14,842 nt of DNA, from assembly GCA_030634615.1 (NCBI GenBank), contig DAOWAL010000014.1, positions 1 through 14,842 on the forward strand, written 5' to 3'. The DNA is from Candidatus Aenigmatarchaeota archaeon. Its GTDB lineage: Archaea; Aenigmatarchaeota; Aenigmatarchaeia; QMZP01; QMZT01. This document shows positions 843 to 14,001 of the stretch, one piece after another. A program made the position numbers and the translations under genes. Each line of letters starts with the position of its first letter. The stretch's first letter is position 1. The notes below the pieces were generated by a model. It made no database searches. It was given only the letters and a program-made list of their open reading frames with translations, and was not told where the DNA came from.

Positions 843-1598
843 CTATATATAGCTATTTAAAAGTTTGCAAGAATCCAGCAGTTCCGAATGTAAGATTCTA
901 CCAATGAAATCTGAAACCACTGACTGTCGGAAGCATTTTTTGACATTTTTTAAAATTTTGAACTTATTAGCATACTTTTCCATGCGAAATTTACCAAAGA
1001 GTATTTCCTCTTTGTCGGTTTTTGAGAGAGTTATTCCAAACAGTGAGCTCATCTTCTTAAAATTGAAGTAACTCATTGTGGTTTTTTTCGTTTTGCTCAA
1101 AAATGCCTTCATGGCTTCCTTTTCTTTTCCTTCCATGAAATAGACTGGACGATTTCTGACTATTACTGATTTCACTGGAACATGACCTTTTAGATACCTG
1201 TATGATCTTTTCACCTGATTTGTATCTTCTCTTTTAGGAACGTAAAAACCGTCTTTCATGAGAACTTTCAACAGATTCAAGGTTCCTCCTCTTATACCAG
1301 TATTACCTTGTTTCTTGGACAAATCCATTGTCAGTCTGTTTACAAAAGATGTGGACACTCCAAATGTTTTAGCTACTTCAATTCTAGGCATACCAGATTC
1401 AACGTATTTTATTATTTTTTTCCTTGTTTTATCAGGTATCTTTCTCCTACCACAATGCATTTTCGGCAAATCGTTAGTCCAGTTGTATACGTTCTTTGGG
1501 CTTATGTTGAACTCTCTCGCAACATCGTATCTGGGACTACCATTTTCTACCTTTTGCCTTATTTTGGATTTCAATTCAGTAGAAGCAAAATTTCCCAT
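843..1598 (-). CDS. Protein with two tandem HTH units and unknown C-terminal domain
   Basis: This is a predicted DNA-binding protein of 251 residues; I do not recognise the family. Residues about 8-46 and 57-95 are copies of one homeodomain-like/resolvase-type HTH unit: both follow the pattern K(I)..V(E).G.PR..VA..F..S...V...T.DL.K at a fixed offset of 49 residues. The rest (about 100-251) is basic and mixed helix/strand, with YRYLKGHVPVK and VYFMEGKEKEAMKAFL as its most distinctive parts. It could be a third winged helix or an endonuclease-like domain, but no catalytic motif is visible. A TATA-like box about 27 bases upstream supports the ATG used. Placed 12 bases before a ribosomal protein gene whose promoter it overlaps, it may be an insertion or a regulator of that operon. 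Confidence 0.75.
   Translation of the reverse strand: MGNFASTELKSKIRQKVENGSPRYDVAREFNISPKNVYNWTNDLPKMHCGRRKIPDKTRKKIIKYVESGMPRIEVAKTFGVSTSFVNRLTMDLSKKQGNTGIRGGTLNLLKVLMKDGFYVPKREDTNQVKRSYRYLKGHVPVKSVIVRNRPVYFMEGKEKEAMKAFLSKTKKTTMSYFNFKKMSSLFGITLSKTDKEEILFGKFRMEKYANKFKILKNVKKCFRQSVVSDFIGRILHSELLDSCKLLNSYI
855..861 (-). promoter_or_regulatory. TATA-like box of the eL34-eL14 operon, inside the HTH gene
   Basis: On the minus strand TTTAAAT is centred about 28 bases before the eL34 ATG, the usual spacing for an archaeal leaderless promoter. These bases also encode part of the C-terminal LLNSYI of the upstream HTH protein, so promoter and coding sequence overlap. A second AT-rich stretch (CTATATATAG) lies closer but would be badly spaced. 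Confidence 0.5.
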
Positions 1599-1733: not shown

Positions 1734-2771
1734 TCAAACTTCATGATAACCATCCACATCATACCAAGAAAGCATCTGGTATGACTGCATGCAATCAACG
1801 TCTTGATATTCTGATGGGAACTCCTCACCAGACACGAGTATTTCCTGATCAAAGTAATTGGCATATTTTGCTGGGTCTGAACACACTGGGTCTATCCTGT
1901 ACCATCCGCTACTAATCTTAACACCTGCCCAACAATGCCCACCCCCTGGAACCAAACCACACTCGACTCTTGCCTTATCATGTGGAACTCCTGAAGCATA
2001 CATCATTCCCACGAAAAGCTGGGCATAGTCGTCACAATCTCCGCACAAGTTGTACTGTGAACCGAATAATAGTTCATCAGGCGAGAAATACTGCATCTGA
2101 ACACAATAATTTCCCAGACATATTCCTTTATCAAAACAATACATATAGTATTCACCAAGCCAGTCGTATATGTCTTTGACCCTTTCCCACATTTCAGCGT
2201 CGTTCCTCGGTTCCTGAACAGATGTGATACCAACAATCAGATTTCTCGTTTCATCATAATCATTCAAAAGCTCGTAAGCGAGTGATCTGTCTATACCCTG
2301 TTTAACTCTTTTTTCGTATAATTTGGCTATCTCAAGCAATCTTTCCGTTTCTTCCAATTCCTCTTCGGTTTGCAAAAGTTCACCAGTTGTCTTATCTAGG
2401 TTATCCTTTGTAGAATCGAGTTCTCCTGTCGTCTGATCCAAATTAATTGTTAATATATCTACTTCGCTTTTCAGTTCTGACAAATCACTTTCCAACCAGT
2501 CTATGTTTATTTCCCTCTGGGTAAGACTATGATTAAGTTTTCCTATTGTCTTTTCATATTTACCGATTATTTCGTTTTGAGTGGATATCGCCGATTCTTG
2601 CTTTTCTATAGTGGCATCACGCTGTGCTACAAATATTTTTTGTCTGTTCCATTCTTCCAAAGAAGAGCGATACATCGAATCCGAACCTTGAAAAAGCAAC
2701 GATAGAAAAATTATAATGAAAACACAAATGCCCAAAGATGCTTTCATGTTGAAAATTTTTGTGAAAATCAT
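1734..2771 (-). CDS. Membrane-anchored coiled-coil protein with transglutaminase-like Cys protease domain
   Basis: This is a predicted extracytoplasmic enzyme of the transglutaminase-like superfamily, which hydrolyses or cross-links peptide amide bonds through a Cys-His-Asp triad. Residues about 9-28 form one hydrophobic signal/anchor segment (MKASLGICVF onward). Residues about 40-150 are a coiled coil with a 14-residue repeat seen as LDQTTGEL and LDKTTGEL. The C-terminal domain carries the triad in order: GDCDDYA (Cys246), GGHCWAG (His279) and YRIDPV (Asp294), with spacing typical of the fold. The TATA-like box at 2792-2800 sits 25 bases before the ATG used; a second ATG eight codons in would leave a better signal peptide. 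Substrate unknown, perhaps cell-surface protein. A winged-helix gene is divergent 96 bases away. Confidence 0.8.
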   Translation of the reverse strand: MIFTKIFNMKASLGICVFIIIFLSLLFQGSDSMYRSSLEEWNRQKIFVAQRDATIEKQESAISTQNEIIGKYEKTIGKLNHSLTQREINIDWLESDLSELKSEVDILTINLDQTTGELDSTKDNLDKTTGELLQTEEELEETERLLEIAKLYEKRVKQGIDRSLAYELLNDYDETRNLIVGITSVQEPRNDAEMWERVKDIYDWLGEYYMYCFDKGICLGNYCVQMQYFSPDELLFGSQYNLCGDCDDYAQLFVGMMYASGVPHDKARVECGLVPGGGHCWAGVKISSGWYRIDPVCSDPAKYANYFDQEILVSGEEFPSEYQDVDCMQSYQMLSWYDVDGYHEV

Positions 2772-3756: not shown

Positions 3757-5901
3757 ATGAAAACGTATATGAATACTTTAAACTTCACCATAGATGCAAA
3801 ACTCATAAGAGAGTTGGGAGAAAGATTGGTCGGTAAACCATCCATTGCATTAGGTGAATTGATTAAAAATAGTTACGATGCCGATTCAACAAAAGCCAAA
3901 ATTCGGTTTGAGCGGTCAGATAGAGGAATAATTACAATCTCAGATGATGGTCAAGGAATGAACTTTGAAGAATTTAAATCGTACTGGATGAGAATAGGAA
4001 CCACTCACAAAGAAGGTTGGCACCGTTCACCAAAGTTTAAACGTATATTAACAGGACAAAAAGGAATTGGGAGATTATCCGTCCAATTCTTGGCTGATGA
4101 AATGGAACTAATAACCGTATCAGAGAAAAACTTAAATAAAAGACTAAGAGCATTCATCCGTTGGGAAGACGCCATAAAGGCTGGAGATTTGATAAAGGCT
4201 ACCGTAAAATACGAAATTGAAGATGGTGATTTTCAACAAGGAACCACAATAAAACTAATTAATTTAATACACGATTGGAGCGAAAACGACTTCAAAGAAT
4301 TAGCAAGGGATATTTGGATTTTGTCACCTCCTTTCAAAGCATTTAAAACGGAACATGGAAACTTTGATATCGACATAATCAGCACAGAAAAGATAATCGA
4401 AAAAATTTTTTCAAAACAAATGAAGGCATTTTTGAATGCTTACGAAGGTAAAATCGTAGGTAAGAACATCAATGGCAACGTAAAAGTATCATTGACACAT
4501 AAAGGATGGGAACAAGCAAATTACGATTACAAAATAGCAGATATTCCAGGTGTCCAGATGGAAAAGGGCAAGGAATTGAAAAATGGAGAATTTGAAATTC
4601 GAATATATAGATTATTGGGACATCAACCATACGGAATATTAGTGGATGATTTGAGAGATTATATGGAAGACTTTCACGGAGTCCACATTTATGATGCTGG
4701 ATTTCATTTACCATATTATGGACAAAAACATGGAGAATGGTTAGGAACTTCTGATGAACAAGCAAGAAGAGTCGCAGTATCCGATATTTTGCCCTCCGAA
4801 TATCAAGTAGATAATGGATTGACTCACTTACCTGGATTGAGAAGAACACTTGGCGTAGTAAAAATCAACACTTCCGAAGAGTTAGGTTTAGAGATAGCAA
4901 TAAGTCGTGATCGTTTGGTGGATACGAAGACATTCAGAGCCTTAAGAGAAATGATTAGATATGCATTGCATTTATACGCAATGGAAATTGGCAAACATAA
5001 AATCCCAAAAATGATTATTCAAGCAATGCCTTCAAACAGGATAGAAACAGTCAATCAAGTACTTGAAAAATATCATGAAGAAATTCCAAATCCCATTTAT
5101 GAAGATCTCAAAAAAAATATAGAAAATGCTATTGAATCTTCGGACAAAAGGGAATCATTATATAGAGATAAGATATCATTTCTCGGTACATTTGCCACGG
5201 CTGGAATTTCTTCGTTAGCGTATCACCATGAAATACAAAAGCAATTGAGAACGATAAGTGATGTTTCAGAAGATATCAAAACCATGATTACCGATAAACG
5301 TATCAATGAAGAAAAACTCAAAAATATAGCATTGGAATTAAGTGAATGGGTAGAGAAAGCGAAACAATTGGAAGCACTATTCAGTTACTACGGAGATGCG
5401 GAAACCATAATGGAAAGTGATTATTATAGTGCAAAGAATGTTCTTGATGAAATAATAAAACAACTTTCGTGGTTTTTGCGGGGGGTAGAAATCAATAACA
5501 ATATCCCAGAAAACGTAAAACTCCCGAAAGCAACTTTGGCAGAGTGGGGTGCAATATTCCAAAATGTGATTCTGAATGCATATAATGCTATATCTGTCTC
5601 AGAAAACAAAGAGAAAGGTGTTATAGGGATAAGTTATATTGAAGATAAAATTGAAAAATCCATTTTGGTACAAGATAATGGAATAGGAGTTGATATTGAA
5701 AATTCGGAAGATCTATTCAAGCCATTTGAAAGGAAAATAAAGTTATCGGATAGTATAAAGGCACTTGGTTATGGAGGAAATGGGATTGGTTTGACTATAG
5801 TTAGATTAATTTCTGAACGAATAGGATGCAGAGCCATTTTCACGCAACCAATAAAAGATTATAAAACTACATTCAAATTGTTTTGGAGGGGGGAGAAATG
5901 A
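3757..5901 (+). CDS. Hybrid MORC/Hsp90-like GHKL ATPase and histidine kinase
   Basis: This 714-residue protein carries two ATP-binding domains of the GHKL fold. The N-terminal one is of the Hsp90/MutL/MORC-like type: N-box ELIKNSYDAD (Glu34, Asn38, Asp41), DDGQGM (Asp63, Gly65, Gly67) and GQKGIG (Gly100-Gly105). A following S5-like domain has the marks of prokaryotic MORC relatives: GVHIYDAGF near 308, WLG at 328 and SRDRL near 383-387. A helical linker leads to a histidine-kinase core with an H-box-like LAYHHEIQKQL (His490/His491), N-box QNVILNAYNA (602-611), DNGIG (640-644) and GYGGNGIGL (671-679). No membrane or sensor domain is present, so the first ATPase may act as the sensor. MORC relatives are known from restriction-modification operons. 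The stop overlaps the next start as ATGA. The ATG at 3757 fits the promoter; one at 3769 is possible. Confidence 0.85.
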   Translation: MKTYMNTLNFTIDAKLIRELGERLVGKPSIALGELIKNSYDADSTKAKIRFERSDRGIITISDDGQGMNFEEFKSYWMRIGTTHKEGWHRSPKFKRILTGQKGIGRLSVQFLADEMELITVSEKNLNKRLRAFIRWEDAIKAGDLIKATVKYEIEDGDFQQGTTIKLINLIHDWSENDFKELARDIWILSPPFKAFKTEHGNFDIDIISTEKIIEKIFSKQMKAFLNAYEGKIVGKNINGNVKVSLTHKGWEQANYDYKIADIPGVQMEKGKELKNGEFEIRIYRLLGHQPYGILVDDLRDYMEDFHGVHIYDAGFHLPYYGQKHGEWLGTSDEQARRVAVSDILPSEYQVDNGLTHLPGLRRTLGVVKINTSEELGLEIAISRDRLVDTKTFRALREMIRYALHLYAMEIGKHKIPKMIIQAMPSNRIETVNQVLEKYHEEIPNPIYEDLKKNIENAIESSDKRESLYRDKISFLGTFATAGISSLAYHHEIQKQLRTISDVSEDIKTMITDKRINEEKLKNIALELSEWVEKAKQLEALFSYYGDAETIMESDYYSAKNVLDEIIKQLSWFLRGVEINNNIPENVKLPKATLAEWGAIFQNVILNAYNAISVSENKEKGVIGISYIEDKIEKSILVQDNGIGVDIENSEDLFKPFERKIKLSDSIKALGYGGNGIGLTIVRLISERIGCRAIFTQPIKDYKTTFKLFWRGEK
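5885..5895 (+). promoter_or_regulatory. Purine-rich Shine-Dalgarno site at the ATGA gene overlap
   Basis: GGAGGGGGGAG lies just before the ATGA shared by the hybrid ATPase stop and the receiver-like start. It selects the ATG at 5898 over the in-frame TTG at 5883, which lies upstream of this site and has none of its own. It implies translational coupling of the two genes. Confidence 0.75.
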
Positions 5902-7085
5902 AAAAGAATGAAATTTTAATTTATGATGATGATGGTAAGATAGGGAAAAGAAATTTAGATAAGTTACAAACTGTCACTGGTTTGAAAAATAATACTAGTA
6001 TCATAGATGATGATAATTTTAGAAAAATGCTATTTGAATTAAACGATAGGAGAAAGAACTGCTTGAAAGGGAGAGAAAAATCTGAAAATCATATAGATGC
6101 AGATGACGCAAAAATTTTCATCGTGGATTTTCGTTTAATGGAAAAATTTCCAGGACTGAATGGTGAAGAGTTTGCATACAACTTACTATGTTTTAGCGAT
6201 TGTAAATACATAATAGGTTTGAATCGTTACCATATGGAAAGTACTTTCGATTTGACCCTCATGGGGAACTTTGATTCTTATGCTGATTTAAATATTAGTT
6301 ATCAAGACCTTGATAATCAAGGACTATGGAATGGGAAAACAACTGGCTACAGACCATGGTATTGGTCGAATGTCTTGAATTATCTAAAAAACCGAGAAAA
6401 ACAAATTAGAGAGGTAGAGAAAAATTTCAATAGTTCAATTTGCGAAACACTCAAAATACCAGAACATGTAATGAAAAACATTCCTAATAGTGCAGGTAAC
6501 TATTTGGGAATTGACAGAAAAAACATCAGCAAAATGACATTCAAAGATTTTTTTCTAAAATCCAATATTCTGGTACCGAGAGATCTAAAAAATGATTTTT
6601 CCGTGAAAAGGAAGGCTAAAATCGTTGCTTCTCGTTTATCAAAATGGTTTGAAATGACGATATTGCCAGGACAGGACATTCTCGTGGACGCTCCACATCT
6701 AGTATTGGGCTTTCCAAGTTTGTTGAGAGGAAATAAAAAAAATATAAGTACATGGAATAAGACCACAAAATTCGGATTGGCGAAAGATTTAGGAATTCAT
6801 CATCAAAAAATAAAAAATCACATATTCAGTGAACATTGGTTATCAAGACCTGCTTGGTTTTGGCACGATATTTCTGAAATGGTAGAGATAGATGAAGTCA
6901 AGGAGCCTTGGAAAAGAAAAGATTTCGGATTTGTTTTTGCTGAAGACGCGTCATCTTTTTATAATAAAAATGAATGTAAAAATTTCATTTCTAGTGTCGA
7001 ATCATCTTTTCGAGAAAGATATATCAAGGACTTTCGGAAAAAATCAGTGAAATACAAACCAATTCAATTACTTTTCAAGAGGTAG
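5898..7085 (+). CDS. Response-regulator-like protein with atypical receiver and unknown effector domain
   Basis: This 395-residue protein starts with a receiver-like domain. It has the acidic cluster after strand 1 (ILIYDDD, Asp10-Asp12), the putative phosphoacceptor in FIVDFRL (Asp77) and a LNGEEFA stretch that matches the GxxGxE part after the acceptor in classical receivers. About 20 extra residues separate the first two sites. The Thr/Ser expected after strand 4 and the Lys after strand 5 are not evident: the matching segments read IIGLNRY and SYADLNIS. Residues from about 135 to 395 match no family I know; landmarks are LPGQDILVDAPHLVL, WLSRPAWFW and FVFAEDASSF. It is coupled by an ATGA overlap to the kinase-like gene, so it is its likely partner. 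Output could be DNA binding, an enzyme or complex assembly. Confidence 0.75.
   Translation: MKKNEILIYDDDGKIGKRNLDKLQTVTGLKNNTSIIDDDNFRKMLFELNDRRKNCLKGREKSENHIDADDAKIFIVDFRLMEKFPGLNGEEFAYNLLCFSDCKYIIGLNRYHMESTFDLTLMGNFDSYADLNISYQDLDNQGLWNGKTTGYRPWYWSNVLNYLKNREKQIREVEKNFNSSICETLKIPEHVMKNIPNSAGNYLGIDRKNISKMTFKDFFLKSNILVPRDLKNDFSVKRKAKIVASRLSKWFEMTILPGQDILVDAPHLVLGFPSLLRGNKKNISTWNKTTKFGLAKDLGIHHQKIKNHIFSEHWLSRPAWFWHDISEMVEIDEVKEPWKRKDFGFVFAEDASSFYNKNECKNFISSVESSFRERYIKDFRKKSVKYKPIQLLFKR
7078..7083 (+). promoter_or_regulatory. Shine-Dalgarno site of the third operon gene
   Basis: AGAGGT lies 6 bases before the ATG at 7090 and overlaps the last codons and stop of the receiver-like gene. It supports one transcript for the three plus-strand genes. 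Confidence 0.55.
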
Positions 7086-7089
7086 AAAT

Positions 7090-7764
7090 ATGATCAGTCA
7101 AAATAGTGAAATATACGATACTAAACGAGTAATTAGGAATATAATAAGCGTTTCAAAAAATAAATGGAATAAAATAGAACGAGATGTCAAAATGAAACAT
7201 TTCGTTGATAAGAAAAACGTGCTAATTTCTCAATATTTTTTTCATGAATACAAAGATAGTATTTACGGTGAACTATCTAAACCGATATTTAAACCTTATA
7301 TTAAAGAACGTAAAAATCATAGAGTTTTTTTACCGCCAACCAAAGATAAAAAGTTCTTACCATTGTTGACATTTGAATGGAATCACAACAAAGGTAATTG
7401 GGATTGGAAATTCATATTGGATATATTGAATACAGAAAAAATAAATACGGAAAATGTTATTAACAGGACACTAAGTTTAAGGTACGAAACCAGTCACGAT
7501 GAAAAAAGTATCCATAATTTTTCACACGTGCAAATAAACAATAAAATCTTTGGTTCAGATAAAGATTCATACACTCTTTCGTGGTTGCCTAAAAGTCATC
7601 CTCACATATTACTACGATCAGATAAATATCACAATTCTCCAGTTATCTTATTAATATTTCTTCTCGCTAGTCTGTATAGTTTTAAGGATATACCAGAATT
7701 TCTAAGAGGAATTCATGAAGACTATCATCGTAAAGATATGAAAAAATATTTCACAAATATGTAA
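7090..7764 (+). CDS. Unknown 224-residue protein, third gene of the GHKL operon
   Basis: I do not recognise this protein. It begins 4 bases after the receiver-like gene with its own ribosome binding site, so it belongs to the same operon. The N-terminal half is basic and mixed. The C-terminal half has the features most likely to be conserved: LSLRYETSH near residue 134, HNFSHVQI near 147, WLPKSHPHILL near 166 and a hydrophobic helix SPVILLIFLLASLYSF near 185. A run of R-Y-E, S-H, L-P and S-P...LLxFLLxxLY recalls small uncharacterised proteins of accessory islands. No nuclease PD-(D/E)XK motif, HNH or membrane anchor can be assigned with confidence, although the hydrophobic helix could touch a membrane. 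Candidate effector or accessory factor of the two-component-like pair. Confidence 0.7.
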   Translation: MISQNSEIYDTKRVIRNIISVSKNKWNKIERDVKMKHFVDKKNVLISQYFFHEYKDSIYGELSKPIFKPYIKERKNHRVFLPPTKDKKFLPLLTFEWNHNKGNWDWKFILDILNTEKINTENVINRTLSLRYETSHDEKSIHNFSHVQINNKIFGSDKDSYTLSWLPKSHPHILLRSDKYHNSPVILLIFLLASLYSFKDIPEFLRGIHEDYHRKDMKKYFTNM

Positions 7765-7782
7765 GATTTACAATGGTATTAT

Positions 7783-8874
7783 CTATTTGTACTTAATGTT
7801 GGGACATTTATCTAGCAAATGTTTTATTACACTTTTCCCAATCACGGTTCCCAATTTAACAGGAACCGCGTTTCCGATATGAATACCTAATCGCTGTGAT
7901 GAAATTTCGGATTTTGGATCAATAAACTTATAATATTTTGGGAAAGTCTGCAAAAGGGCACCTTCTCTCAGAGAAAGAGCTCTGTCTTGTTCTGGATGAC
8001 CGAAACGACCAGTTCCGAAAATGTAGAATTGTGTCGTTATCGTAGGTGAAGGTTTGTCCCATTCCATTCGAGAATAAACAGTAGTGTAAGTTGCCCCAGT
8101 CTCTTTTCTATGACATGGCGAACGCAATTCTTCATCCCAATCCAACCACGTTCCACCAGGCGTTGATTTATTGATACGTATTTTATTGAGTGGAGACAAA
8201 TTAGATGCCCTATGTAGAGGATCATTTTTGGACTTACCACCACTTTTTATGGATTCAATTTTATATATTGTATCTCTCACCGTTCTGTAATTCGATTTTT
8301 TGTGAGTTTTCGGTAGAAGTTTTATTTCTCCAAGTTTTGATGCTAACAATACCAATCTTCTTCTGCTCTGCGGAATGCCATAATCTGGACAATAAACTGT
8401 CTCATAAAAAATTTGATATTTGAGTTTTTTTAATTTGTTTACAAAATCTGCAAAAACTTTCTGCTTTTGTATTTGTGGAACATTTTCCATGGAAATTATA
8501 TCTGGTTCAGCTTCTTCAACTAATCTTGAAAACGAATACAAAAGACCCCATTTCTCATCCTCGCTACGTTTTTTGTTTTTCTGGGTATGTTTTGAGAAAG
8601 GTTGGCATGGGGCACACCCTACTAAAATTTTAGTACATCCTTTAGGATATAATTTCTTTAAAAAATCGCCAGTAATTTTTCTTACATCTTCTTTGATGAA
8701 AGTACTTTTGTTGTTTTTTTCGTATGCATATTTGCAAGTTCCATCACTATCTATGCCAGCAATTACTGGTATACCAGATTTTATGAGACCATGAGTTATA
8801 GCACCAACTCCACAAAAAAGATCAATAGCAGCATAATGCCTGTCTTCTTTAACATTTCCAATTTTATTTTTCAT
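7783..8874 (-). CDS. DNA (cytosine-5-)-methyltransferase
   Basis: This enzyme transfers a methyl group from S-adenosylmethionine to carbon 5 of cytosine at a specific DNA site. At 363 residues it has normal length and the standard motif order: motif I AIDLFCGVG (16-24), motif IV GCAPCQPFS with catalytic Cys90, motif VI MENV (Glu130), motif VIII QSRRRLVLLAS, a target-recognition region, and motif X HIGNAVPV. All key residues are present, so it should be active; the site it methylates cannot be read from sequence. The start lies 6 bases after the winged-helix stop, making it the last gene of a three-gene minus-strand operon. Its stop is 18 bases from the end of the convergent 224-residue gene. 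No restriction enzyme is recognised beside it. Confidence 0.95.
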   Translation of the reverse strand: MKNKIGNVKEDRHYAAIDLFCGVGAITHGLIKSGIPVIAGIDSDGTCKYAYEKNNKSTFIKEDVRKITGDFLKKLYPKGCTKILVGCAPCQPFSKHTQKNKKRSEDEKWGLLYSFSRLVEEAEPDIISMENVPQIQKQKVFADFVNKLKKLKYQIFYETVYCPDYGIPQSRRRLVLLASKLGEIKLLPKTHKKSNYRTVRDTIYKIESIKSGGKSKNDPLHRASNLSPLNKIRINKSTPGGTWLDWDEELRSPCHRKETGATYTTVYSRMEWDKPSPTITTQFYIFGTGRFGHPEQDRALSLREGALLQTFPKYYKFIDPKSEISSQRLGIHIGNAVPVKLGTVIGKSVIKHLLDKCPNIKYK

Positions 8875-8880
8875 CTAATA

Positions 8881-9189
8881 TCACATTTTGTCAGCAACAG
8901 ATAATTTTATTTTCCATTGCGTCTTCTTTACTTTCACAATAGTCTTTCTAGTTCCACTTTTAGTATTAGTGTTTATTATAACAGTTTTCTTTTTCATTAT
9001 ATTTTTTCTTCCAACCAAACCTAGATTTTTTAGTTTTATTAAATGACTCTTCGCAGTTCTCCAATCAAGTCCCAAAGCACCTGCTATTTCATTTGTGGTA
9101 AGATTATCGTAGTGAACTAAAATTCGGATTATTCTTTTCTGATTAGGTGTAAGACATCTCAATTTTTCTTTCAAGTTATCCCTATTCAT
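8881..9189 (-). CDS. Winged-helix protein, likely regulator of the methyltransferase operon
   Basis: This 102-residue protein carries a winged-helix DNA-binding domain: LTPNQKRIIRILVHYDN, then the HTH LTTNEIAGALGLDWRTAKSHLIKLKNLGLV at about residues 30-60, then a Lys-rich wing and tail (KNIMKKKTVIINT). I chose the ATG at 9189, which overlaps the stop of the preceding AbrB-like gene as ATGAATAG; a GTG at 9198 would add three residues. Overlap upstream and a 6-base gap downstream put it in one operon with the AbrB-like gene and the methyltransferase. By analogy with controller proteins of restriction-modification systems it may limit methyltransferase expression, but this is inference. Confidence 0.75.
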   Translation of the reverse strand: MNRDNLKEKLRCLTPNQKRIIRILVHYDNLTTNEIAGALGLDWRTAKSHLIKLKNLGLVGRKNIMKKKTVIINTNTKSGTRKTIVKVKKTQWKIKLSVADKM

Positions 9190-9484
9190 CCAACTCACTC
9201 AATATTTTTTTCTGCATTTTATTCATTTTTTTTGTTTTTATTATTTCAAGCCTCAGAACAGAACTATCGGAATGTGCGGTCGGTGGCGTGTATGAAGCTG
9301 TCATTTCGTCTTTGTCCTTAAGTCCAAATTTATCTGCCAGAAATTTTGGTATTTTTACCGAATATTGATAATACGTTTTACCTTTCATTTTTAACTTATG
9401 TTTTGAAACTTTGACTTTAATTGGTTCAGTTTCAGCGTCCACCTCATCAATGGCTCTCATCAACTCTCGTTTTGAGGTATACAT
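9182..9484 (-). CDS. AbrB/SpoVT-like DNA-binding protein
   Basis: This 100-residue protein is the first gene of the methyltransferase operon. Residues about 38-66 match the AbrB/SpoVT swapped-hairpin pattern, SVKIPKFLADKFGLKDKDE (compare S-V-x-I-P-x-x-L-A-x-x-L-G-L-x-x-G-D in antitoxins and transition regulators). Such proteins bind DNA as dimers and often repress their own promoter. The N-terminus is a helix (SKRELMRAIDEV) and the C-terminus a basic tail. The ATG is supported by a TATA-like box 27 bases upstream, flanked by two arms of an inverted repeat that look like its operator. No toxin gene is adjacent, so an antitoxin role is not supported. Confidence 0.7.
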   Translation of the reverse strand: MYTSKRELMRAIDEVDAETEPIKVKVSKHKLKMKGKTYYQYSVKIPKFLADKFGLKDKDEMTASYTPPTAHSDSSVLRLEIIKTKKMNKMQKKILSELDE

Positions 9485-11412: not shown

Positions 11413-14001
11413 TTACGCTTTCTGCTCTTTTCCGTTAACCATTGCAGAAAATCCTTTGTTTGCAGTTCTCGTGTCATACTGCATAATGACTTCTTCGCCT
11501 GGATTTAGTTTTAATATTTCCCATGTAAGGACATCTGTTGTCGCGTTGAGTGCTTTTATCCCAGGAACCATTCTTGATCGTATGAATGCTCCTTTTGGTA
11601 CAGAATCACGTATTGTTATACCTTCGAGCATTTCTTTTGTTTTATTTCTTATTTTAAGCATAACGTGGGGACCACTTACGGTTTTTTCAAGTTTTAATGG
11701 ACCACCGCCACCTATACTTATACCGCTCATCACACCACTTCCTTTGATGAACTTGAAGTATACCACAACACCGCCGGCAATGCAGCCAATGAGAATAACT
11801 ATCTGAACAATAAGCATAACATTAAACGGCTCAGAAACTTCACCCGTGTTTGACTCAGTGTAATAACCTTCTTTACGAGCATTTATTTCAACCCTTCCGG
11901 CATGCTTTATTGTGATTTCAACAAGACCATTACTGTTTGTGTATTCCTCTTCCATATCGACAAGAGGATCAGTATCAGGATATTCAATAGTAAGTTTCAC
12001 ATTACTAACAGCATTGCCGTCCTGATCAAACACCATTATTTTAACTTTCTGGCCAACTGAAAATTTGTCAGGTATTGCAAAGGAAAGTCTCATTTCTATG
12101 CACGTGTTGGAACTTGTATCGCATACTTCATTTCTGTCGCACTGAAGATCGCTGCAGCAATACCCGGGAGCCATGTTGCATCTGTGGTTTGAACGCTTCT
12201 CCGAGCACTCGCATAATACAAGTTCACAGGTGTTTGATTCAGTGTCACAGTATTTAGTATCATCACATTCGCTGTCATAACAGCAATCGTATTTAACGCA
12301 CTCATGATCAACTGCATATCCGCACGTACAATCGAGTTCTATGCACCTGTTATTCAAGCAAACATCTGTGCCGTAAAAACAATCGTCCGTGTCAAAACAA
12401 TCATATGTTGGATAAACAGTAAAGACCACGCTTGTTGAGTTTTCTACATCATCAACTGAAGTGCACGTAACAGTGATTTCATAATCACCTTCCATATCAT
12501 CGACATCCAGATATCCCCTGAACCATGTCTCGTCAATTTCGCTGAGATCTCCGGTTGTGTTGTCAACTAAATATGAACACGATGTAATGTTCGTTTCACT
12601 CGATACTTCAATTCTGAGTGTACCGTTTGCAGTAAGATCTCCTTTCATATATGTTATGTTCTGCGGCGAGTGTAAAGTGAAATTGAATGTTGCGTTCTCT
12701 TCAGGTGGAGGTTCTATCTCGTCTGTCTCATTTATGGTGAGATTCACAGAAACTCTGTCGCCTGTTAAATTTAATATCGTATAGTTGCTCGTGAAACCGA
12801 CTTTTGTAATATTAAGTATGTAAGGATTGTAATAGAATGTTCCTGATTCGTTTTCTTCCTCTATAGTGTTAGCTAAACATGCAGGAAAAGTTTGAATCAA
12901 CCACCCTTCTCCGTATTCGGCGGTTCTGTTACCTTTTATTGTGAAATTTACTTCATCCACATAACCGCCATCTGCATCAAAAACCTCAAAGCAGATATTG
13001 GCTTGTCTCAATAATCTGTTGTATGTTGTATTCTCAAAGGTAATGTTTCCGGATGAAAATATGAAGATGTCATGATAGCTATTATTCACAATAATACTGT
13101 CTTTAACAACGATATCATCCTGTCCGTAAATGCTAAGGCCTCTTCCATAATTATTCTTGAATATGTTCCCTGAGAAAATAGTGCTATAGTTACTCTTTAC
13201 ACCAAACCCGGAATTGTTTATACACAAATTGTTTGTAATGTTGTTGCTATTTCCACTTACATATATTTGCGCATCATTTAGGTTATTAAGGAATGTGTTG
13301 TTGCTTATCACGGAATTATCCAGAATTATTGTTGCTGCTGCTACTCCAACATTGTTCTTTATGATATTACCTTCGAAAAATATCCCATCACCAGAAAAAT
13401 ATCCACCTGAGATCGATTCACTGATATTGTTGCCTGTTATCACATTGTTGTTTCCATACATGTAAAATCCTAATTGATTTGAGGTGAAGTTGTTACCAGT
13501 AATTACGCTATTGTCAGAATACAGCAAAATTCCTTTGAAATTATTCGTAAACGTCGTGTTAGTTATGTTTGTCCAGTCAGACTCTATGTAAACCCCTTCC
13601 ACATCATCACGCATGTAACTATTATATCCACAATCGTGCACAAATGAATCTTTGATTTCAAGCGTTGCGCCGCTGTTTGACACAAACGTGTAAGCATAAG
13701 CAGACTCACTTTCAATTGTTGAGCCTTGCTGAATTAGAAGTGACCCATCGTTCTCAAGACCGAATTCACCATTTGATGTTGAATTGAACTGAAGAACAGT
13801 GTTTTCCAAAACAAGTGTACCCGAACTGTTTATCAGAATATTTCCATTCAGGTTAAGGAATTTATCTGTACATGTAACGCTTTCATTGACTAACCAGTCA
13901 CCGCTGTCGGGAACTTCGTAACCGCCGCAGTCTTCTGCTGTAACAAGTAACGGCGACATTGCTAAAATTAGCACTACCAGTAACAAACCCCAATTCTTCA
14001 T
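11413..14001 (-). CDS. Large surface protein: beta-helix, Cys-rich modules, membrane anchor, cytoplasmic DUF11-like domain
   Basis: This 862-residue protein is exported and anchored in the cell envelope. In order it has: a signal peptide (1-22, GLLLVVLILAMSPLL); a right-handed beta-helix of the NosD/parallel-repeat type (about 40-330) built from turns such as NNVITGNN and SVISNNTFLNN; an Ig-like stretch (about 340-525); a Cys-rich segment (about 533-635) of three related units with YDCCYDSEC and GYCCSDLQC cores; another beta-sandwich (about 640-720); one transmembrane helix (about 726-748); and a C-terminal DUF11-like domain (about 770-855). More than 25 N-x-S/T sequons by eye suggest heavy N-glycosylation. 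The role may be adhesion or binding of surface polymers. A leaderless-type TATA box supports the ATG. NosD similarity means fold only, not copper chemistry. Confidence 0.85.
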   Translation of the reverse strand: MKNWGLLLVVLILAMSPLLVTAEDCGGYEVPDSGDWLVNESVTCTDKFLNLNGNILINSSGTLVLENTVLQFNSTSNGEFGLENDGSLLIQQGSTIESESAYAYTFVSNSGATLEIKDSFVHDCGYNSYMRDDVEGVYIESDWTNITNTTFTNNFKGILLYSDNSVITGNNFTSNQLGFYMYGNNNVITGNNISESISGGYFSGDGIFFEGNIIKNNVGVAAATIILDNSVISNNTFLNNLNDAQIYVSGNSNNITNNLCINNSGFGVKSNYSTIFSGNIFKNNYGRGLSIYGQDDIVVKDSIIVNNSYHDIFIFSSGNITFENTTYNRLLRQANICFEVFDADGGYVDEVNFTIKGNRTAEYGEGWLIQTFPACLANTIEEENESGTFYYNPYILNITKVGFTSNYTILNLTGDRVSVNLTINETDEIEPPPEENATFNFTLHSPQNITYMKGDLTANGTLRIEVSSETNITSCSYLVDNTTGDLSEIDETWFRGYLDVDDMEGDYEITVTCTSVDDVENSTSVVFTVYPTYDCFDTDDCFYGTDVCLNNRCIELDCTCGYAVDHECVKYDCCYDSECDDTKYCDTESNTCELVLCECSEKRSNHRCNMAPGYCCSDLQCDRNEVCDTSSNTCIEMRLSFAIPDKFSVGQKVKIMVFDQDGNAVSNVKLTIEYPDTDPLVDMEEEYTNSNGLVEITIKHAGRVEINARKEGYYTESNTGEVSEPFNVMLIVQIVILIGCIAGGVVVYFKFIKGSGVMSGISIGGGGPLKLEKTVSGPHVMLKIRNKTKEMLEGITIRDSVPKGAFIRSRMVPGIKALNATTDVLTWEILKLNPGEEVIMQYDTRTANKGFSAMVNGKEQKA

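What the first reader, a model, noticed from the sequence alone, without database searches (positions are those of the whole stretch)
3757..7764. Candidate new three-gene signalling system: MORC-like/kinase hybrid, receiver-like protein and unknown effector
Three coupled genes (ATGA overlap, then a 4-base gap) encode a protein with two GHKL domains, a receiver-like protein with an unknown 260-residue output domain, and an unknown 224-residue protein. MORC relatives are established members of restriction-modification and conflict operons (Iyer, Abhiman and Aravind 2008), but I know of no described defence system with this exact set. The setting beside a methyltransferase operon and a transposase in an AT-rich island supports a defence or epigenetic-signalling role.
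Basis: partly seen in the sequence, partly recalled or inferred. Interest (0 to 1): 0.75.

Follow-up and report, generated by a model that had tools for sequence, protein, structure and literature searches.

The report
Phosphorelay module paired with DNA methylase
An archaeon carries a conserved gene set, found in many distant bacteria, that looks like a kinase-to-receiver signalling chain wired to a DNA-methylating enzyme and ending in an unknown third protein, and that may act like a restriction or anti-virus system whose cutting step is replaced by signalling.

The parts
3757..5901 (+). Gene 1: GHKL (HATPase_c_3) + middle region + DHp-like helix with H491-E492 + CA (HATPase_c) kinase, 714 aa
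   Evidence: Pfam; CpxA DHp-CA (475-684) and MutL (23-84) matches; conserved boxes of both ATPase domains and invariant HE in 19 distinct homologues
5898..7085 (+). Gene 2: receiver domain (about residues 8-180 of the 400-aa ORF) + uncharacterised C-terminal output domain
7090..7764 (+). Gene 3: candidate effector, 224 aa, invariant R131, E133, H146, Q148 and nearly invariant H142 (R-x-E ... H-x-x-x-H-x-Q)
   Evidence: Alignment of 18; one match per genome in 19 of 19 carrier genomes; low-confidence model, no clear fold match
7783..8874 (-). Cytosine-5 DNA methyltransferase, 363 aa, convergent with the trio (18 bases between the two ORFs)
   Evidence: PF00145 E 4.8e-58; best PADLOC model DrmMII E 9.3e-97; homologue near the trio in 16 of 20 loci
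8881..9198 (-). Small winged-helix protein just upstream of the methylase, possible regulator
   Evidence: HTH_24 E 3.7e-05; no match among the ORFs of the other trio loci (single-sequence profile)
9182..9484 (-). 100-aa protein overlapping the winged-helix gene, unknown
   Evidence: No family over a cut-off, none in PADLOC; no match among the ORFs of the other trio loci

Best explanation
The four genes form one module: a DNA methylase that marks self DNA, and a three-step relay that reads something tied to that mark. Gene 1 uses its N-terminal GHKL and middle region as the input (probably an ATP-driven clamp on DNA or on the methylase-DNA complex) and its C-terminal DHp-CA part as a histidine kinase. 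It phosphorylates itself on H491 and passes the phosphate to D82 of the gene 2 receiver. The gene 2 output domain then releases or activates gene 3, the effector. Where no other nuclease or toxin was recognised nearby (the window; L010 and L013, with only one further neighbour scanned in each), gene 3 or the gene 2 output domain would have to do the work of a restriction enzyme or of a growth-stopping toxin. Shown here: conservation, linkage, domain identities, intact catalytic residues, receiver fold. Inferred: phosphotransfer, DNA or methylation sensing, gene 3 as effector, role in defence.
For: Linkage: genes 2 and 3 adjoin in 20 of 20 loci chosen by gene 2, with gene 1 upstream in 19 of 20. 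Chosen by gene 1 instead: 8 of 398 Pseudomonadota genomes match at E up to 1e-40 (two candidates per genome were scored); 4 of 8 have the strict trio plus cytosine-5 methylase (2 of the 4 are seeds), 2 of 8 a distant trio, 2 of 8 a kinase plus a receiver-like gene without gene 3. Gene 3 profile: one match in each of 19 carrier genomes; in samples of 400 and 84 genomes only the 1 and 4 seed genomes match. Chemistry kept: H491, E492, both sets of ATP boxes, D15, D16, D82. Receiver fold. Co-divergence over 15 loci: g1/g2/g3 r 0.84-0.88, with the methylase 0.70-0.71. The methylase falls into four sequence groups that do not follow the kinase tree, and three distant trios adjoin Eco57I-type methylases: modification is a frequent partner, its kind is not fixed. 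Patchy spread: 1 of 156 genomes of the window's phylum, the window itself, and carriage on plasmids.
Against: No biochemistry. The receiver lacks the usual Thr/Ser (an Asn, N114, is invariant) and shows no conserved Lys, so switching may be unusual. Gene 3 matched no known nuclease or toxin family and no clear fold. Four of 20 loci show no methylase in the DNA fetched (L005, L007, L008, L015): each is cut by a contig end on at least one side, but L007 and L008 have none in 4.8 kb upstream and L015 none in 4.7 kb downstream. In several loci the neighbours scanned are metabolic. Relatives of gene 1 occur without gene 3 (L027, L029, L056, L057) or with a third gene lacking the motif (L026), and L029 and L056 show no methylase nearby. 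No homologue of gene 2 came from viral contigs.
Confidence: 0.42

Rival explanations
1. The trio is itself a restriction complex without a phosphorelay: the two GHKL parts act as ATP-driven clamps or loopers, as proposed for paraMORCs, and gene 3 or the gene 2 output domain is a nuclease. The HK and receiver folds are kept for assembly, not for phosphotransfer.
For: N-terminal GHKL closest in NCBIfam to that of BbrUII/HgiDII restriction enzymes; two PADLOC REase_II models match the same part; paraMORC proteins lie beside nucleases and methylases (PMC2292703, passages); no other nuclease recognised near the window copy.
Against: H491-E492 and the three receiver Asp are invariant across distant homologues, which a dead relay would not need; gene 3 shows no nuclease family or fold match.
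Confidence: 0.23
2. An epigenetic two-component regulator: it senses methylation state and changes gene expression, for example of the methylase, with no role against phages.
For: Kinase-receiver architecture; the 2021 authors suggest an environmental-response system (PMC8011034); in some loci the scanned neighbours are metabolic genes.
Against: No DNA-binding domain over a cut-off in gene 2 or gene 3 (the gene 2 C-terminal domain was barely tested by fold); patchy, partly plasmid-borne, laterally spread distribution.
Confidence: 0.2
3. A selfish addiction module: the methylase is the antidote, and its loss triggers the relay and gene 3, keeping the island or plasmid in the cell.
For: Carriage on plasmids and a transposase beside the window copy; R-M systems are known to behave so (recalled).
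Against: Not distinguishable from defence by sequence; only two of the loci studied with the strict trio are on records labelled plasmid.
Confidence: 0.1

Closest known systems
HEF_HK (PF19191) / Response_reg_2 (PF19192) two-component-like pairs, Bellieny-Rabelo et al. 2021 (PMC8011034)
   Same: Soluble HATPase_c_3 + DHp + HATPase_c kinase beside a receiver-like gene, linked to C5 methylases and Vsr. In the two PF19192 loci fetched the order is methylase, kinase, receiver-like, and their kinases match the gene 1 profile (E 1.1e-37 and 1.2e-30).
   Different: Gene 1 and gene 2 list neither PF19191 nor PF19192 at E up to 1; the receivers are not alignable by profile (probability 0.1 and 0.5); the two kinases lie outside the trio clade; no gene 3 match better than E 0.24 in those two loci. 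The paper speaks of bacteria; 'archaea' occurs there once, in a reference.
paraMORC / GHKL proteins of R-M operons, Iyer et al. 2008 (PMC2292703, passages)
   Same: N-terminal GHKL ATPase, in methylase neighbourhoods.
   Different: Here a complete histidine-kinase C-terminus follows; no helicase or nuclease is fused.
BbrUII/HgiDII-type restriction enzymes (NCBIfam NF050001)
   Same: N-terminal GHKL domain, residues 9-191 of gene 1, E 1e-24.
   Different: 87.1 bits against a cut-off of 550; the C-terminal part of gene 1 is a kinase.
Detocs (kinase-receiver phage defence; recalled, not tested; one search gave a listing only)
   Same: A His-Asp relay in defence (recalled).
   Different: Recalled to use other kinase and effector proteins; no methylase partner that I know of.

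Membership tests
Two-component system: histidine kinase | Phospho-acceptor His in a DHp helix before a CA domain with N, G1, F, G2 boxes | tested here: met
   H491-E492, N603/N607, D640-G642-G644, F654/F657, G673-G678 invariant in 19 distinct sequences; CpxA DHp-CA match E 1.5e-05. The DHp helix is read from the alignment; gene 1 was not modelled.
Two-component system: receiver | Receiver fold with acidic pair and phospho-Asp | tested here: met
Two-component system: receiver | Conserved Thr/Ser at the end of strand 4 and Lys at the end of strand 5 | tested here: not met
   Invariant Asn (N114) after the fourth strand; no invariant Lys in 19 sequences
Two-component system | His-to-Asp phosphotransfer | not testable with these tools
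   Needs protein
HEF_HK / Response_reg_2 (PF19191/PF19192) | Match to both Pfam models | tested here: not met
   Neither family listed at E up to 1 for gene 1 or gene 2
HEF_HK / Response_reg_2 (PF19191/PF19192) | Kinase and receiver genes adjacent, near C5 methylases | tested here: met
   Adjacent in every testable locus; methylase in 16 of 20
MORC / paraMORC | N-terminal GHKL followed by an S5 domain, with family-specific motif | tested here: inconclusive
   GHKL shown; middle region conserved but S5 fold and MORC motif not tested
BbrUII/HgiDII restriction enzymes | Score over the family cut-off across the whole protein | tested here: not met
   87.1 bits against 550, residues 9-191 only
DUF2290 (considered for gene 3 because of a similar R-x-D...HP-x-x-H motif) | Profile similarity | tested here: not met
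   hhalign of three DUF2290 proteins against the gene 3 alignment: probability 0.2, 0.6 with three more gene 3 sequences
Anti-phage defence system | Protection against phage or plasmid | not testable with these tools
   No phenotype data; PADLOC has no match for genes 2 and 3; gene 1 matches two REase_II models over the GHKL part and a weak HEPN_IX model

The most novel reading that the evidence does not exclude
A restriction-modification-type immune system in which the restriction enzyme is replaced by a His-Asp phosphorelay: an interchangeable DNA methylase marks self, a GHKL kinase reads the mark, and a receiver switches on a new effector family (gene 3, R-x-E...H-x-x-x-H-x-Q), shared by bacteria and archaea.
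Probability: 0.35. Interest if true: 0.82.

Novelty: new variant of a known kind. Interest (0 to 1): 0.6.

Why it matters
If right, immunity or DNA-state sensing would run through phosphorelay signalling tied to DNA methylation, with a modification enzyme that can be exchanged and a new effector family. It also makes the 2021 proposal of methylase-linked two-component pairs directly testable, because here the minimal unit is clear: four genes, and four invariant residues to mutate (GHKL E34, H491, receiver D82, gene 3 H146).

Tried and rejected

Counts to read with care: the 20 loci were chosen by gene 2, so gene 2/3 linkage is conditional on that; L024 and L004 are the same plasmid; L003 came from a separate plasmid search and is outside the 20; broken or cut copies (L005, L007, L009, L015, L022, L024) are included in the 20. 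In one search one sequence appears twice (20 rows, 19 distinct). The hits are the seed genomes themselves, and only some candidates per genome were scored. Receiver-like calls for L054-L057 are by eye; Pfam gave none over a cut-off. Of 91 plasmid records matching gene 1 I opened 7: 2 strict trios (L003, L004), 2 distant trios with the motif (L025, L028), 1 with a third gene lacking the motif (L026), 1 kinase-receiver-methylase set (L027), 1 kinase plus short receiver-like gene without a methylase listed nearby (L029). Most neighbours of the loci were not scanned: 20 neighbours or methylases.

Changes made on rechecking: phyla eight, not nine; methylase identity ranges, gene 3 profile probabilities, the trusted part of the gene 3 model, and the contig-end wording for loci without methylase.

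Full report
Observation. The window is an archaeal contig: ribosomal L14e and L34e at the left end and an ScpB-like gene at the right end. Gene 3 ends 18 bases from the end of a convergent cytosine-5 methylase gene (7783-8874), itself behind two small genes (8881-9198, 9182-9484). GC is only mildly lower than in the flanks.

Recurrence. A scan of 84,980 species genomes with a three-sequence alignment of gene 2 gave 20 loci. By record title and the tree's labels they belong to WOR-3, Poribacteria, Chloroflexota, Elusimicrobiota, Pseudomonadota (one a Magnetococcales), Acidobacteriota, Nitrospinota, Actinomycetota and a Thorarchaeote. Profile searches of all ORFs and maps show genes 2 and 3 adjoining in 20 of 20 and gene 1 before them in 19 of 20; in the other, the Thorarchaeote contig, the record starts inside gene 2. 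Some copies are cut by contig ends or broken (L005, L007, L009, L015, L022, L024). A methylase homologous to the window's lies near in 16 of 20. The four without are L005, L007, L008 and L015, each cut by a contig end on at least one side, but with 4.8 kb upstream (L007, L008) or 4.7 kb downstream (L015) free of one. A plasmid of Mycolicibacterium arabiense, found apart, has the same trio with a divergent cytosine methylase.

Independent anchors. With gene 3 as the query, each of 19 carrier genomes has one match; in samples of 400 genomes of one carrier's phylum and 84 of another, only the seed genomes match (1 and 4). Gene 2 occurs in 1 of 156 genomes of the window's own phylum, the window itself. 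With gene 1 as the query (E up to 1e-40), 8 of 398 Pseudomonadota genomes match: two seeds and two new ones have the strict trio with a cytosine-5 methylase; two have a distant trio beside an Eco57I-type methylase (one also with Vsr and a cytosine-5 methylase); two have the kinase and a receiver-like gene but no gene 3 motif, one of them with a cytosine-5 methylase match. In plasmids, of 7 opened records 2 are strict trios, 2 distant trios with the motif, and 3 lack gene 3 or its motif. So gene 1 has a wider life, while genes 2 and 3 travel together.

Kinase. Both ATPase domains keep their boxes, and the His-Glu pair of the presumed DHp helix is invariant in 19 distinct sequences. Local matches are to CpxA for residues 475-684 and to MutL for 23-84. 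In a tree of 26 kinases the 19 trio members are one side of a 100/98 branch, with the window next to WOR-3 and Poribacteria, which fits transfer from bacteria into this archaeon; the program flags long branches outside the clade.

Gene 3. Eighteen sequences share R131, E133, H146 and Q148, with H142 nearly invariant. Distant trios show a kindred motif ([RH]-x-[DE] ... H-P-x-x-H-x-Q), with only weak profile support (probability 17-33 where the motif aligns). The model has five short strands followed by helices and is trusted only for about residues 80-150 and 170-200, with no clear fold match. The conserved charged residues suggest an enzyme or a ligand site; this is inference.

Methylase. Pairwise identities over 15 loci show four groups; the window's group (L006, L010-L013, L020) shares 45-56 percent, and its members share 18-33 percent with the rest. 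The kinase tree does not follow these groups: L017, with a Vsr-fused methylase of another group, sits inside the window's clade (100/98), and L013 and L020, with window-type methylases, sit with the group-C carriers (93/97, an open fork). The trio distances correlate with each other (r 0.84-0.88) more than with the methylase (0.70-0.71). Eco57I-like genes form a cluster in 7 loci (one member scanned), and Vsr is adjacent or fused in several. The relay therefore goes with methylases of different kinds, which suggests that the methylase, not the trio, holds the sequence specificity. That last step is inference.

Known relatives. HEF_HK/Response_reg_2 pairs were described as two-component-like, in 91.6 percent linkage, and enriched for R-M genes with conspicuous cytosine-5 methylases and Vsr (PMC8011034). 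I fetched two PF19192 loci (2 of 229 genomes): both have methylase, kinase and a 555-617 aa receiver-like gene, no gene 3 match, and receivers not alignable to gene 2. The window set is thus a sister variant with a different output.

Verdict. Defence, phosphotransfer and the action of gene 3 remain to be shown. New variant of a known kind.

Noticed in passing
window 1734-2771 (minus): 345-aa protein with an N-terminal membrane or coiled-coil part and, by eye, a transglutaminase-like Cys/His/Asp region (GDCDDY...GGHCWAG...RIDP). No family search made.
   Followed up: no
window 843-1598 (minus): 251-aa protein with two N-terminal helix-turn-helix repeats of transposase/resolvase type (CENP-B_N, HTH_7), between ribosomal genes and the island.
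   Followed up: no
window 11413-14001 (minus): 862-aa probable secreted surface protein with repeat-rich N-terminus and Cys-rich middle, by eye.
   Followed up: no
window 9182-9484 and 8881-9198 (minus): Two small genes coupled to the methylase gene; the 105-aa one is a winged helix, like a control protein of an R-M system. No match among the ORFs of the other trio loci.
   Followed up: partly
L027 and plasmid records: 43 of 91 plasmid records matching gene 1 are Campylobacter; in the one opened (C. armoricus) the kinase is followed by a receiver gene and a cytosine methylase.
   Followed up: partly
L028:4033-11041: Rhizobium plasmid: distant kinase, receiver-like and gene 3-like genes followed by a GIY-YIG nuclease gene, with a divergent methylase.
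   Followed up: partly
L014:9630-11261 and 13586-15199: Caspase-domain protein close downstream of the trio, and a second gene matching the gene 1 profile (E 1.2e-42), cut by the locus end.
   Followed up: no
L016:3-4549 and L021:2-4564: A DNA methylase plus a ResIII-type protein directly upstream of the trio in two Pseudomonadales genomes (map; L016 copies scanned), as in a type III-like R-M operon.
   Followed up: no
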